A stretch of DNA of 64,000 bases from Thiohalospira halophila DSM 15071. GTDB taxonomy: Bacteria > Pseudomonadota > Gammaproteobacteria > Thiohalospirales > Thiohalospiraceae. Shown here piece by piece: positions 460 through 17,996 of the stretch. The DNA is taken from contig NZ_FOMJ01000001.1 of NCBI RefSeq assembly GCF_900112605.1, forward strand, positions 210,577 to 274,576, read 5' to 3'. The position numbers and the translations under genes were made by a program. The notes beneath the pieces are model-generated. The model ran no database searches, was not told the origin of the DNA, and was given only the letters and a program-made list of their open reading frames with translations. Each line of letters begins with the position of its first letter. Positions within the stretch are counted from its first letter, which is position 1.

Positions 460-687
460 ATGAGTACTAACAGGCAGCTAACCGCAGTGATCGAGAAAGA
501 AGATGACGTCTACGTGGCATTCTGTCCCGAAGTCGATATCGTCAGCCAGGGGGAGAGCATCGAGTCTGCCCGAGCCAATCTGCGAGAGGCGCTGGAGCTG
601 TTTTTCGAGGGGGCTCCCGAAGAAGAGGTCCGGGGGCGGTTTCACGAGGATATCTTCGTGACCAGCGTAGGCGTGGCTGTTGGGTAA
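460..687 (+). CDS. hicB: HicB-family antitoxin
   Basis: A 75-residue protein with the HicB partial RNase-H-like fold: an N-terminal strand pattern (TAVIEKEDDVYVAFCPEV), the D-x-x-S-Q-G-E-S turn and a helix rich in AREALELFFE. HicB antitoxins bind and neutralise HicA mRNA interferases. ATG at 460 follows GAGAGAGCGG; a longer frame opens upstream but has no family similarity. The gene overlaps hicA by 8 bp, so translation is probably coupled. The order is antitoxin first, common in this subgroup. No C-terminal DNA-binding domain is visible, so self-repression would need another factor. Confidence 0.85.
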   Translation: MSTNRQLTAVIEKEDDVYVAFCPEVDIVSQGESIESARANLREALELFFEGAPEEEVRGRFHEDIFVTSVGVAVG

Positions 688-904
688 GCTCAGGCCGCTG
701 TCGGGGAAACAGGTCATGGCGATCCTGGCCAAGCACGGGTTCGAGGAGGTGCGTCGGCGAGGAAGCCATGTACTCATGCAGAAACAGGACGAAGGAGGGA
801 CGACAACCATCCCCGTGCCGGACCACAAGGAACTCAAGATCGGGACGATGCAGTCCATCGTGCGACAGTCCGGGCTGCCCCGAGCCGAGTTCGAGCAGGA
901 TTGA
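680..904 (+). CDS. hicA: HicA-family mRNA interferase toxin
   Basis: A 74-residue double-stranded-RNA-binding-fold toxin. KPLSGKxVxxIL-type opening (here LRPLSGKQVMAILAKHGFE) is followed by RRRGSHVLM, where His30 is the expected catalytic histidine, and then TTTIPVPDHKELKIGT, the typical C-terminal half. HicA cleaves mRNA and is neutralised by HicB. The start is a TTG at 680 inside the hicB 3' end; no ATG gives the full domain. Length and key residue are intact, so an active toxin is plausible. Confidence 0.87.
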   Translation: MGKLRPLSGKQVMAILAKHGFEEVRRRGSHVLMQKQDEGGTTTIPVPDHKELKIGTMQSIVRQSGLPRAEFEQD

Positions 905-981: not shown

Positions 982-3081
982 TTGCTTGGTAACCAACGGG
1001 AATCGGCCTTGGCGCTGGACGAGATCGCCTACAAGCTCCTGGTGCGGCTGGCCGAGCGGCCGGCGCTGACCCAGCGGCAGCTGGCGGGAGAGGTGGGGCT
1101 GTCGGTGGGCAAGACCCACAACGTCCTGCGCGAACTGGTGGCTGCGGGGCTGGTGGAGGCCGGCGACGCGCGCCGGCGCACCGGCACCGCCGGCTACCGC
1201 CTGACCCCGCAGGGGCGGCAGGAGAAGAGCCGGCAGACGCTGGGCTTCCTCCGCCGCAAGCGCGCCGAGTTCGAGGCCCTGCGCGCCGAGATCCACGACC
1301 TCTGGTCCCAGGCACCCGATTCCCCCGACCCATTCACCGGATTACCCACACGGACGGCAAGCACCATGGCACATTCCCTCATCGCTCCCCACGGCGGCTC
1401 CCTGGTGGACCGCATGCTCGACGACGCGGCGGCCGAGACCGAGCGGCGCGGCTCCCAGGACTACCCGGGCTGGACGCTGACCCACCGGCAGGCCTGCGAC
1501 CTGGAGCTGCTCATCACCGGCGCCTTCTCGCCGCTCATCGGCTTCATGACCCGCGCCGACTACGAGACGGTGCGCGATGACATGCGCCTGGCCGACGGCA
1601 CCCTGTGGCCCATGCCCATCACCCTGGACGTGTCCGAGGCTTTCGCCGAGAAGCTGAGCGAGGGCGACCGCATCGCCCTGCGGGACGAGGAGGGCGCCCC
1701 GGTGGCGGTGATGGATGTCCACGACATCTACCGCCCCCGCAAGGACCGCGAGGCGGAGGCCATCTTCGGCGCCGACGACCGCGCCCACCCGGCGGTGGCC
1801 TACCTCCACGACGAGGCCGGCCCGGTCTATCTCGGTGGCCCGGTCTACGGGGTGGAGCCGCCGGTCCACTACGACTTCAAGCACCTGCGCTACACCCCGG
1901 CGGAGATGCGCGCCCACTTCCAGAAGCTGGGCTGGTCCCGCGTGGTCGCCTTCCAGACCCGCAACCCCATGCACCGCGCCCACCAGGAGCTCACCTACCG
2001 GGCGGCGCAGCAGGTGGAGGCCAACCTCCTCATCCACCCCGTGGTGGGCATGACCAAGCCCGGCGACATCGACCACTACACCCGGGTGCGCTGCTACGAA
2101 CACCTGCTGGAGCGCTACCCGGAGCAGACCACCGCCCTGGCGCTGCTGCCCCTGGCCATGCGCATGGGCGGCCCGCGCGAGGCGCTGTGGCACGCCATCA
2201 TCCGCAAGAACTACGGCTGCACCCACCTCATCGTCGGCCGCGACCATGCCGGGCCGGGCAAGAACTCCGCCGGCGAGGACTTCTACGGCGCCTACGACGC
2301 CCAGGACCTGGTGACACGCCACGCCGACGAGCTGGGCATCGAGATGGTGCCCTTCCAGATGATGGTCTTCGTGGAGGAGCGCGGGCAGTACTTCCCCGCC
2401 GACGAGGTGGGCGAGGACGAGAACGTCCTCTCCCTCTCCGGCACCGAGCTGCGCCGCCGCCTCAAGGAGGGCGTGGATATCCCCGAGTGGTTCTCCTACC
2501 CCGAGGTGGTCAAGGAGCTGCGCCGGACCTACCCGCCGCGCCACCGCCAGGGGCTCACGCTCTTCTTCACCGGCCTCTCCGGCTCCGGCAAGTCCACCGT
2601 CGCCCGGGCCATCCAGGCCAAGCTCATGGAGATGGGCGACCGCCCCGTGACCCTGCTGGACGGCGACATCGTCCGCCGCAACCTCTCCAGCGAGCTGACC
2701 TTCTCCAAGGAGCACCGCGATCTCAACATCCAGCGGATCGGCTTCGTGGCCTCGGAGATCACCAAGAACGGCGGCATCGCCATCTGCGCCCCCATCGCCC
2801 CCTACGCCGCCACGCGGCAGAAGGTCCGGCGGATGATCGAGGCCGAGGGCGGCTTCCTGGAGGTCCACGTGGCCACGCCGCTGGAGGTCTGCGAGCAGCG
2901 CGACCGCAAGGGCCTCTACGCCAAGGCCCGCACCGGCGAGATCCCCGAGTTCACCGGGATCTCCGACCCCTACGAGGCGCCGGAAGAGCCGGAGCTGCGC
3001 ATCGACACCGCGACCATGACCCCGGACGAGGCGGCCCACAAGGCCATCCTCAAGCTGGAGAGCCTGGGCTTTATCCGCTAA
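982..3081 (+). CDS. sat-cysC: EPS-associated MarR-type regulator fused to ATP sulfurylase/APS kinase
   Basis: One open frame with three parts. Residues 1-115 resemble the EPS-associated MarR-family regulators (winged helix; TQRQLAGEVGLSVGKTHNVL) and match the separate regulator at 17667. Residue 129 onward (ATG at 1366) is ATP sulfurylase with QTRNPMHRAHQE and GRDHAGPG. From about residue 522 comes APS kinase with Walker A GLSGSGKST and DGDIVRRNLSSEL. Together the enzyme domains turn sulfate and ATP into PAPS, the sulfotransferase donor. No stop separates regulator and enzyme; there is no good ribosome site before 1366. The start could be TTG at 982 or TTG at 1009 (MALDEIAYKLL). Either a true fusion or two genes with internal initiation. 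Confidence 0.82.
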   Translation: MLGNQRESALALDEIAYKLLVRLAERPALTQRQLAGEVGLSVGKTHNVLRELVAAGLVEAGDARRRTGTAGYRLTPQGRQEKSRQTLGFLRRKRAEFEALRAEIHDLWSQAPDSPDPFTGLPTRTASTMAHSLIAPHGGSLVDRMLDDAAAETERRGSQDYPGWTLTHRQACDLELLITGAFSPLIGFMTRADYETVRDDMRLADGTLWPMPITLDVSEAFAEKLSEGDRIALRDEEGAPVAVMDVHDIYRPRKDREAEAIFGADDRAHPAVAYLHDEAGPVYLGGPVYGVEPPVHYDFKHLRYTPAEMRAHFQKLGWSRVVAFQTRNPMHRAHQELTYRAAQQVEANLLIHPVVGMTKPGDIDHYTRVRCYEHLLERYPEQTTALALLPLAMRMGGPREALWHAIIRKNYGCTHLIVGRDHAGPGKNSAGEDFYGAYDAQDLVTRHADELGIEMVPFQMMVFVEERGQYFPADEVGEDENVLSLSGTELRRRLKEGVDIPEWFSYPEVVKELRRTYPPRHRQGLTLFFTGLSGSGKSTVARAIQAKLMEMGDRPVTLLDGDIVRRNLSSELTFSKEHRDLNIQRIGFVASEITKNGGIAICAPIAPYAATRQKVRRMIEAEGGFLEVHVATPLEVCEQRDRKGLYAKARTGEIPEFTGISDPYEAPEEPELRIDTATMTPDEAAHKAILKLESLGFIR

Positions 3082-3107: not shown

Positions 3108-3272
3108 ATGCGTACCACCTACGATGAAGCCGACGACATCCTTACGGTGCATCTCTCGGAGAAGCCGATAGCCCGTGAGTGTTCGCAGGAGTTGTGTCGC
3201 GGTCTACGAGGGCTTCCCCCGTCCTCCGTGACGGTTGAAGCCCTCGGACACAACCAGCCCGAGTCCCGATAG
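3108..3272 (+). pseudogene. DUF2283-type small gene, 5' part, interrupted
   Basis: ATG at 3108 follows GGAGAG. The first 27 residues (RTTYDEADDILTVHLSEKP, then IARECSQ) match the opening of DUF2283-family proteins, of unknown function and often near TA genes. After codon 27 or so the frame reads into unrelated sequence and stops at 3272. A fitting 3' part (SEVVILEASKQGAWPLL) lies at 4885-4962, beyond the IscB element, so the element probably split this gene. Confidence 0.6.
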
Positions 3273-3455
3273 GGGCTATGGTCGATCGGAATACATAGGC
3301 ACTCCGGGGTGCTCTTCCAGCTCCGGACCCTGCGGGCAGGGATCATGAGACCGAAGGACCGTGAGGGTCGAAGGTCTCTGCCGAAAACCCGGTCGGCCCT
3401 GGGCGAGGAAGCCTGAACCGGCTCTTTGGAGCCGAGACGATGAGGTAACTCATCC
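3191..3455 (+). ncRNA. Probable omega RNA (HEARO-type) of IscB
   Basis: The 265 bases directly before iscB have no plausible gene but rich structure. GTTGTGTC (3191-3198) pairs with GACACAAC (3247-3254), GAGGGCTTC (3208-3216) with GAAGCCCTC (3237-3245), and CCGTC (3219-3223) with GACGG (3230-3234). Near the end GGCTC-TTTG-GAGCC (3420-3433) and GATGAG-GTAA-CTCATC (3439-3454) form hairpins, the last ending 2 bases before the iscB ATG. Position and size fit known IscB guide RNAs; the guide would be the flank just 5' of about 3191, inside the broken DUF2283 gene. Structure is seen; function is inferred. Confidence 0.55.
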
Positions 3456-4802
3456 ATGCAGCAACAGCGCGTGTTCGTGCAGGGCCGAGAGGGCTCACCC
3501 CTCATGCCCTGCCATCCGGCTCGGGCCAGACGCCTCCTCCGAGTGGGTCGGGCGAAGGTGGTCCGGCGCGTCCCTTTCACGGTCCGCCTGATCGACCGGG
3601 ACCAGAAAGACTCCGCCGTCCAGCCGGTGAGTCTGCGCCTCGACCCGGGGGCAAGGACGACCGGGGTGGCCCTGGTCGCCGAAGGCGGCCGGGGCGCCCG
3701 GGCCGTCTGGGCAGCGGAGCTCACCCACCGGAGCCAGAGCATCCGGTCAAGGCTCACCGACCGGCGGATGTACCGCCGGGGCCGGCGCAGCCGCAAGACC
3801 CGGCACCGGCCACCACGGCTCCAGAACCGCGCCCGGCCCAAGGGATGGCTCCCGCCTTCGCTCCAGTCCCGGGTGGACAACACCCGGACCTGGGCCGAGC
3901 GGCTGGCCTGTCGAGCGCCGGTCAGCACCGTGGTCGTGGAGACCACCCGCTTCGATGTCCACGCCCTGTCGGCGGGGAAACCGCTGGCCGGGGTGGAGTA
4001 CCAGCAGGGCACCCTCCAGGGTTGGGAGCTGCGGGAATACCTGCTCCACCGTCACGGGCACACCTGCGCCTACTGCCAGGGCGAGAGTCGGGACCCGGTG
4101 CTTGAAGTCGAACATGTCCACCCCCGGTCCCGGGGCGGCTCTAACCGGGTCGCCAACCTCGTCATCGCCTGCCAGACCTGCAACACCGCCAAGGGGAACC
4201 GCACCCCCGGCGAGTGGGCGGTTGCCCTGGGTAGAACGAAGTTCGACCAGGCCCGGGCGAAGACCGCCCCGGCCATCGAGGCCGGAAAGCCATCCAGCTT
4301 GCGGGACGCCGCCGCCATGAATGCCTCCCGGTATGCCGTGGGCCGGGCCGTAAAGACCCTGGGCCTGCCCGTGACCTTCACCAGCGGCGGCCGGACCAAG
4401 GCCAACCGGAGTAGTCAGGGCTACCGCAAGGCCCACTGGATCGATGCGGCCTGCGTCGGCCCGGCCGGCGACTCGGTCCATCTGGATCCGAACGCCCCGG
4501 TCCTGTCCATCACGGCCACCGGCCGAGGACAGCGACGGGTCACCAAGCCCGACCGCTATGGCTTTCCTCGCGGGGCCGCCGGGCGCGTGAAGCGTGTCCA
4601 GGGGCTGCAGACCGGCGACCGGGTGCGGGCCGTGGTGCCCACCGGGAAGTATCGAGGAAGCCATGTGGGTCGCGTGGCCGGCGTCCGGGCCGATGGCCGA
4701 ATGGACGTAGCCACGACCCGCCAGAAGTTCACGACCACGGCGGCCCGGCTGGCCCGCCTCCAGGCCGCCGATGGCTACCACTACGAAGGCGCTGGCTTGT
4801 GA
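3456..4802 (+). CDS. iscB: IscB RNA-guided endonuclease
   Basis: A 448-residue IscB, the ancestor-like relative of Cas9. In order: PLMP domain (SPLMPCHPARARRLLRVGRA, residues 14-33), RuvC-I with Asp63 in RLDPGARTTGVAL, an arginine-rich bridge helix (RRMYRRGRRSRKTRHR, near 103-118), RuvC-II Glu in VVVETTRFD, an HNH module with CAYC, VEHVHPRSRGG and ACQTCN, RuvC-III Asp in HWIDAACVG, and a C-terminal domain (LQTGDRVRAVVPTGKYRG). All catalytic residues seem present and length is normal, so it is probably active. IscB cuts DNA chosen by the 5' guide of its omega RNA. ATG at 3456 directly follows the RNA's last hairpin. Confidence 0.92.
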   Translation: MQQQRVFVQGREGSPLMPCHPARARRLLRVGRAKVVRRVPFTVRLIDRDQKDSAVQPVSLRLDPGARTTGVALVAEGGRGARAVWAAELTHRSQSIRSRLTDRRMYRRGRRSRKTRHRPPRLQNRARPKGWLPPSLQSRVDNTRTWAERLACRAPVSTVVVETTRFDVHALSAGKPLAGVEYQQGTLQGWELREYLLHRHGHTCAYCQGESRDPVLEVEHVHPRSRGGSNRVANLVIACQTCNTAKGNRTPGEWAVALGRTKFDQARAKTAPAIEAGKPSSLRDAAAMNASRYAVGRAVKTLGLPVTFTSGGRTKANRSSQGYRKAHWIDAACVGPAGDSVHLDPNAPVLSITATGRGQRRVTKPDRYGFPRGAAGRVKRVQGLQTGDRVRAVVPTGKYRGSHVGRVAGVRADGRMDVATTRQKFTTTAARLARLQAADGYHYEGAGL

Positions 4803-4862
4803 CCGACCGCGACGAGACACCCCCCAGCGAACGACCTCCTGCGCCGCAACGCTTGCCGATCG

Positions 4863-4880
4863 GTCGGCGGGTCCGCCGAC
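4863..4880. repeat. Perfect hairpin near the right end of the IscB element
   Basis: GTCGGCGG, GT, CCGCCGAC: an 8-bp perfect stem 61 bases after the iscB stop. Subterminal hairpins of this sort are TnpA binding sites in IS200/IS605 elements, so this may mark the right end. Confidence 0.4.
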
Positions 4881-4884
4881 TTCC

Positions 4885-4962
4885 TTGTCGGCGTCCGAGG
4901 TCGTCATCCTCGAGGCCTCCAAGCAGGGGGCATGGCCGCTTCTGCGCTCCGAAGTTGCTTGA
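4885..4962 (+). pseudogene. DUF2283-type small gene, 3' remainder
   Basis: The frame ending in TGA at 4960-4962 reads SASEVVILEASKQGAWPLL and a short tail, which resembles the C-terminal strand and end of DUF2283 proteins. It has no start of its own. Together with the 5' part at 3108 it reconstitutes one small gene interrupted by the IscB element; a few middle codons may be missing or altered. Confidence 0.42.
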
Positions 4963-17650: not shown

Positions 17651-17666
17651 CCGGAGCCCCAGCCCC

Positions 17667-17996
17667 ATGCCCTCCGACGAATTCCACTACCAGCTCATGA
17701 AGCGCCTCGAGGCCGACCCCGAGGCCAGCCATCGGCAACTGGCCGAGGAGCTGGGTGTGTCCGTGGGCAAGACCCACTACAGCCTCAAGGCGCTCATCGA
17801 GCGCGGCTGGGTCAAGGCCGGCAACTTCCGCCGCAGCGACAACAAGCTCGCCTACGCCTACTACCTCACGCCCCAGGGCATGAACGAGAAGGCGCGCCTG
17901 GCCCTGCGCTACCTCCGCACCAAGCAGGCGGAGTACGAGCGCCTGCACGCCGAGATCGAGGCGCTGAAGCAGGAAGTGGAGCAGGGCGGGGAGTAA
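17667..17996 (+). CDS. EPS-associated MarR-family transcriptional regulator
   Basis: A 109-residue winged-helix protein: SHRQLAEELGVSVGKTHYSL (recognition helix), KALIERGWVKAGNFRRSDNK (wing), YYLTPQGMNEKARLALRYLR, and a C-terminal coiled coil (TKQAEYERLHAEIEALKQEV). It belongs to the EPS-associated MarR-type regulators usually found first in exopolysaccharide loci. It probably binds the palindrome in its own promoter. It is the first gene of the locus, after the ops site; the same domain is fused to Sat-CysC at 982 and truncated at 16890. Confidence 0.88.
   Translation: MPSDEFHYQLMKRLEADPEASHRQLAEELGVSVGKTHYSLKALIERGWVKAGNFRRSDNKLAYAYYLTPQGMNEKARLALRYLRTKQAEYERLHAEIEALKQEVEQGGE

What the first reader, a model, noticed from the sequence alone, without database searches (positions are those of the whole stretch)
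3108..4962. Complete IscB with its omega RNA region splitting a DUF2283 gene
All IscB catalytic motifs are intact (RuvC-I/II/III, HNH, PLMP, bridge helix), the 265 bases before it are strongly structured, and the two halves of a small DUF2283-like gene flank the unit. This lets one predict the guide: the flank just 5' of about 3191, i.e. the broken gene itself, so the nuclease would cut the empty site. No tnpA is present.
Basis: partly seen in the sequence, partly recalled or inferred. Interest (0 to 1): 0.72.

Follow-up and report, generated by a model that had tools for sequence, protein, structure and literature searches.

The report
Complete IscB mobile element, imperfectly inserted
This is an intact copy of a known kind of bacterial mobile element that carries its own RNA-guided DNA cutter (IscB, a relative of Cas9), sitting in a small broken gene that it is probably programmed to recognise; it is an ordinary but clean example, except that about 34 bases of the target gene are missing at the insertion site.

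Summary
Window 3191-4887 (1697 bp) is a complete ISC/OMEGA element. It has an omega-RNA scaffold (HEARO RF02033, 66.9 bits, E 8e-13; below Rfam's curated score, but 28 of 46 pairs covary in seven relatives), an intact iscB (NCBIfam guided_IscB, 383 bits against a cut-off of 175; all five catalytic residues present) and a right-end hairpin. Both ends were fixed by comparison with sister copies elsewhere, whose flanks diverge exactly at GTTGAGTC (left) and after ...TCCTTC (right). The element lies inside a DUF2283 gene, so the predicted 16-nt guide is the gene's own sequence, 3175-3190.

Two corrections. First, the split is not clean: intact homologues carry 11 codons plus a base (about 34 bp) that are absent here, and the partner DUF4258 gene survives only as its last codons. 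Second, this sublineage is followed by NNGG at its right end (five insertions), unlike the TGATGA of canonical HEARO relatives. NNGG fits the known IscB TAM (NNRR) and occurs at the predicted site in intact homologues. The element's own left end reads GTTG, so it should not cut itself. No tnpA and no second iscB were found in the genome. New member of a known kind; cleavage is inferred, not shown.

The parts
3175..3190 (+). Predicted 16-nt guide of the omega RNA (GTGAGTGTTCGCAGGA), part of the broken DUF2283 gene
   Evidence: Lies directly 5' of the left end; 16-17 nt guide length from OgeuIscB (PMC9640706). No other site in the own genome with NNGG and 2 or fewer mismatches to a 15-nt core
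3191..3430 (+). Omega RNA (HEARO) scaffold; guide-adaptor hairpin arms 3191-3198 and 3247-3254
   Evidence: RF02033 E 8.3e-13; fold z -5.15; inverted repeat; 28 of 46 pairs with compensatory change in 7 relatives, 0 of 500 shuffles. The 3' end is approximate
3456..4802 (+). iscB, 448 aa: PLMP, RuvC-I/II/III, bridge helix, HNH, C-terminal TAM-interacting region
   Evidence: AlphaFold model with best PDB matches IscB/IsrB (VIA Z 20.1)
4803..4887 (+). Right end of the element; hairpin GTCGGCGG-gt-CCGCCGAC at 4863-4880 followed by TTCCTTG
   Evidence: same hairpin-TCCTTC layout at the right ends of L038, L044, L047 and L039
4888..4891 (+). NNGG motif (TCGG) next to the right end: predicted TAM and insertion-site motif
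   Evidence: Sister insertions are followed by TAGG, GCGG, GTGG and TCGG
3108..3190 (+). 5' piece of the DUF2283 gene (codons 1-28)
   Evidence: Homologues L024 to L027; Pfam DUF2283 weak match 0.0011 to 0.0053
4888..4962 (+). 3' piece of the DUF2283 gene (about codons 40-63 and stop)
   Evidence: Residues 43-63 match L024 and L025; the exact start is uncertain by up to 3 codons
3088..3108 (+). Remnant of the upstream partner gene (DUF4258): last six codons FEWREQ and stop, overlapping the DUF2283 ATG
   Evidence: L024 has a DUF4258 gene (1.4e-10) ending HHFEWEDE-stop at the same place

Best explanation
It is a complete IscB (OMEGA) element of the ISC/HEARO kind, single copy and apparently without its own transposase. 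Shown by sequence: ends, intact nuclease gene, covarying omega RNA, placement in a DUF2283 gene. Inferred from the family: a transcript starting in the DUF2283 5' piece supplies a guide of about 16 nt (3175-3190) joined to the scaffold. IscB with this RNA would cut DNA that carries the guide sequence followed by NNGG, which means an allele of this gene lacking the element, or the joint left after excision. The cut would be repaired from an element-bearing copy, so the element is retained. The element does not cut its own site, because the guide sequence there is followed by GTTG, not NNGG. The element probably inserted just before the invariant Trp codon (NTGG) of DUF2283; the 34 bp on its right side were lost in that event or later, leaving the right end against another NNGG.
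For: guided_IscB 383 bits; catalytic residues conserved; structure matches IscB/IsrB, Z 20. HEARO E 8.3e-13 with covariation far above shuffles and slid controls. Three sister copies in one other genome share one element and differ in flanks exactly at GTTGAGTC and after TCCTTC, followed by TAGG, GCGG and GTGG; L039 has TCGG. OgeuIscB TAM is NNRR and its guide 16-17 nt (PMC9640706). Intact homologues read TGG right after codon 28, giving NTGG at the predicted site. No second guide match with NNGG at 2 or fewer mismatches.
Against: No expression, RNA or cleavage data. No closely related genome with the empty site is held (genus has only this genome), so the 34-bp loss is judged from homologues about 55-72% identical. 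The sublineage TAM rests on five junctions, three of them from one genome. No sigma-70-like promoter was found upstream. The late-loss part of the statement is much less certain (about 0.5) than the identity of the element.
Confidence: 0.85

Rival explanations
1. The element is a stranded relic: intact by chance, no longer mobile because no transposase is present and the target gene is damaged; IscB has no present role.
For: No tnpA in the vicinity, only one Y1_Tnp in the genome and that REP-associated in look; single copy; target and partner gene are remnants.
Against: IscB and omega RNA are fully preserved, including the compensatory U-A for A-U change in the first stem; both ends are intact. 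Only a few HEARO/IscB nucleases are found with tnpA (PMC9755519), so its absence is usual.
Confidence: 0.3
2. The host gene had already lost its middle 34 bp and the element then inserted cleanly at the resulting joint, before TCGG.
For: TCGG at the right end is the expected NNGG motif; the L044 insertion is clean; the partner DUF4258 gene is also truncated, so the locus was decaying.
Against: Does not explain why the left end coincides with the NTGG site of intact homologues (chance about 0.1).
Confidence: 0.35
3. Host-domesticated IscB with a role unrelated to transposition, such as gene regulation or defence.
For: No transposase; single chromosomal copy.
Against: Both transposon ends are present; the guide matches only its own insertion gene, as for a self-maintaining element; no close IscB in the other genomes of the order.
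Confidence: 0.05

Closest known systems
ISC elements / OMEGA IscB systems (HEARO RNA, RF02033; OgeuIscB, KraIscB)
   Same: RuvC-HNH nuclease with PLMP, guide plus omega RNA 5' of iscB, guide taken from the flanking DNA, tnpA absent from most loci
   Different: HEARO score below the curated cut-off, long guide-adaptor hairpin, left end GTTGWGTC and right-flank motif NNGG instead of GTCAAC and TGATGA
   Same: Same sublineage: GTTGAGTC left end and covarying omega RNA in all; hairpin-TCCTTC right end and NNGG flank in L038/L044/L047 and L039
   Different: 46-56% protein identity; other insertion genes; the L044 insertion shows no target loss
IS200/IS605 TnpB elements
   Same: RNA-guided nuclease that uses flanking DNA as guide and promotes element retention or drive (PMC11870625)
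   Different: TnpB is Cas12-like, with guide at the 3' end and TAM 5' of the target (own knowledge)

Membership tests
IscB (NF040563) | Score over curated cut-off, full profile | tested here: met
   383.4 bits against 175, profile 1-314 of 314
IscB (NF040563) | PLMP motif, RuvC D/E/H/D and HNH His | tested here: met
   PLMP 15-18, D63, E162, H220, H327, D330; OgeuIscB counterparts D61, E193, H247, H340, D343
HEARO / omega RNA (RF02033) | Match at Rfam's gathering score | tested here: not met
   66.9 bits against 83
HEARO / omega RNA (RF02033) | Significant match over the whole model with covarying structure 5' of iscB | tested here: met
   E 8.3e-13, model 1-211; covariation. Sister loci score 40-77 bits, one 101.6, so this is a diverged branch
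ISC transposon | Defined ends, different flanks in copies | tested here: met
   By homology with L038/L044/L047; the window copy itself is single
ISC transposon | Clean insertion in a target present in relatives | tested here: not met
   About 34 bp of DUF2283 missing compared with L024 to L027; a later or earlier deletion would explain this without changing what the element is
OMEGA system | RNA-guided cleavage of guide plus TAM DNA | not testable with these tools
   Needs biochemistry
IS200/IS605 with own transposase | tnpA in the element | tested here: not met
   None in 3191-4887; one Y1_Tnp match elsewhere in the genome

The most novel reading that the evidence does not exclude
In this IscB sublineage, insertion or re-cutting is tied to loss of flanking target DNA between two NNGG motifs: 34 bp here, and about 35 profile positions (about 100 bp) of a CheW domain in L039. 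This would mean that the nuclease or the transposase shapes the target beyond simple insertion.
Probability: 0.12. Interest if true: 0.5.

Novelty: new member of a known kind. Interest (0 to 1): 0.3.

Why it matters
It gives a compact IscB (448 aa) with defined ends, a predictable guide and a short predicted TAM (NNGG), from a branch whose RNA mostly scores below the standard HEARO cut-off. The broken target gene makes the retention model of IscB directly testable. Otherwise it adds one example to a well-studied class.

Tried and rejected
An apparent antisense omega RNA downstream of iscB in L037 and L039 was my error: those loci are given on the opposite strand, and the arrangement is ordinary. 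A scan of genome contigs with the protein gave only one relative; the same scan of viral contigs gave none. A viral pattern scan for the left-end stem gave 23 contigs, of which L058, L063 and L076 carry an IscB match and L072 is cut at the contig end. L058 and L076 gave no clear right end, and neither did L037. An empty site for L039 was not found in its genus. The model is of moderate confidence (pLDDT 68.7), so the fold matches only confirm the family. The second-look structure list was not used to exclude any family. Promoter and terminator scans gave nothing.

Full report
Observation. The ORF at 3456-4802 (448 aa) is an intact IscB: Pfam RRXRR 6e-64 and HNH, NCBIfam guided_IscB 383 bits with cut-off 175 over the whole profile. 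In an alignment with 12 relatives (45-54% identical) D63, E162, H220, H327 and D330 are invariant. They correspond to OgeuIscB D61, E193, H247, H340 and D343 (PMC9640706; alignment). An AlphaFold model (pLDDT 68.7) matches IscB and IsrB structures best (Foldseek E 4e-21; VIA Z 20.1, 235 residues, 3.5 A).

Omega RNA. The leader folds far better than shuffles (z -5.15) and matches HEARO over the whole model with E 8.3e-13. At 66.9 bits it is below the gathering score of 83. Sister loci L037, L038, L039, L044, L058 and L076 score 40-77 bits, and L063 101.6. Seven such leaders give a consensus with 28 of 46 pairs showing compensatory change, 89.5% of cells paired, 0 of 500 shuffles as high and a sharp drop when partners are slid. 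The cmscan alignment starts late at 3234, because the guide-adaptor hairpin is longer here (arms 3191-3198 and 3247-3254).

Ends. Three copies in one other genome (L038, L044, L047) are 95-99% identical inside and unrelated outside. The left end is GTTGAGTC; the right end is a hairpin followed by TCCTTC; next come TAGG, GCGG and GTGG. L039 ends the same way before TCGG. In the window the left end is GTTGTGTC at 3191, and the right end is an 8-bp hairpin plus TTCCTTG ending at 4887, followed by TCGG. A perfect 8-bp hairpin arose in 23 of 2000 shuffles of the right-end stretch. The right ends of the window and of L039 were placed by looking for this layout, so their NNGG is weaker evidence than that of the three sister copies. 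Canonical relatives (L023, L040, L042, L048 to L051) instead start GTCAAC (one GTCAAT) and end before TGATGA or a close variant. The NNGG motif fits the NNRR TAM of OgeuIscB (PMC9640706). NNGG occurs at about 10% of positions in the window.

Target. The flanks match DUF2283 proteins. The homologue query was a composite: the two window pieces joined by a middle that I supplied from memory of the family, so its score is not evidence for the middle. The homologues found with it (L024, L025, L026, L027) are independent sequences. L024 reads MRTTYDEADDILVLHLSDKHTVKEVSQD-WNTHISYAGDG-TITEIVILDASKQGAWPLLKSQAA. The window has codons 1-28 before the element and about codons 40-63 after it, so about 34 bp are missing. 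Directly after the left flank, intact homologues carry the Trp codon, giving NTGG. The upstream partner is also a remnant: L024 has a DUF4258 gene (1.4e-10) ending FEWEDE, and the window keeps only FEWREQ-stop just after the sulfate gene. A paper on RelE/ParE-superfamily toxins mentions DUF4258 (PMC11980606, found, not read), so this may be a decayed toxin-antitoxin pair (inference).

Is target loss usual? L044 interrupts a radical-SAM gene without visible loss: the joined flanks give one continuous Pfam match. L039 interrupts a CheW gene whose joined product lacks the first 35 profile positions. With the window, loss is seen in two of three testable insertions, too few for a rule, and no empty sites were found.

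Mechanism. By the established model for IscB and TnpB, the guide is the flank of the element. The predicted guide is 3175-3190. The own genome has no other NNGG site within two mismatches of a 15-nt core (the resident site itself appears there with one mismatch, because it is followed by GTTG and lacks the motif). The nuclease should thus cut element-free alleles or the excision joint (guide followed by TCGG) and spare itself. TnpB of IS200/IS605 has been shown to act as a drive in this way on plasmids (PMC11870625, abstract). For this IscB it is inference. No transposase is encoded; the only Y1_Tnp match is on another contig, in an ORF that looks REP-associated (not tested further), and only a few HEARO/IscB loci carry tnpA (PMC9755519).

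Conclusion. A complete, single-copy IscB element of a diverged HEARO branch, with its guide in the gene it broke. The additions are the exact ends, the NNGG motif, and the loss of about 34 bp.

Noticed in passing
window 982-3081: One 699-aa reading frame joins a MarR-type EPS-associated regulator (TIGR04176, 78.1 bits, below its cut-off of 88) in frame to a bifunctional sulfate adenylyltransferase/APS kinase; in related genomes the match starts only at the enzyme. Gene fusion or missed stop.
   Followed up: partly
window 526-904: HicA toxin gene (680-904) preceded by a HicB-like fragment.
   Followed up: no
window 17661-17981: Second copy of the MarR-like domain, 47% identical to the N-terminus of the 699-aa frame.
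   Followed up: no
L039: IscB element in a multi-CheW gene whose joined flanks lack about 35 positions of the first CheW domain.
   Followed up: partly
L058 3495-3592: IscB element of the same branch starts a few bases after the 3' end of a tRNA gene on a viral contig.
   Followed up: no
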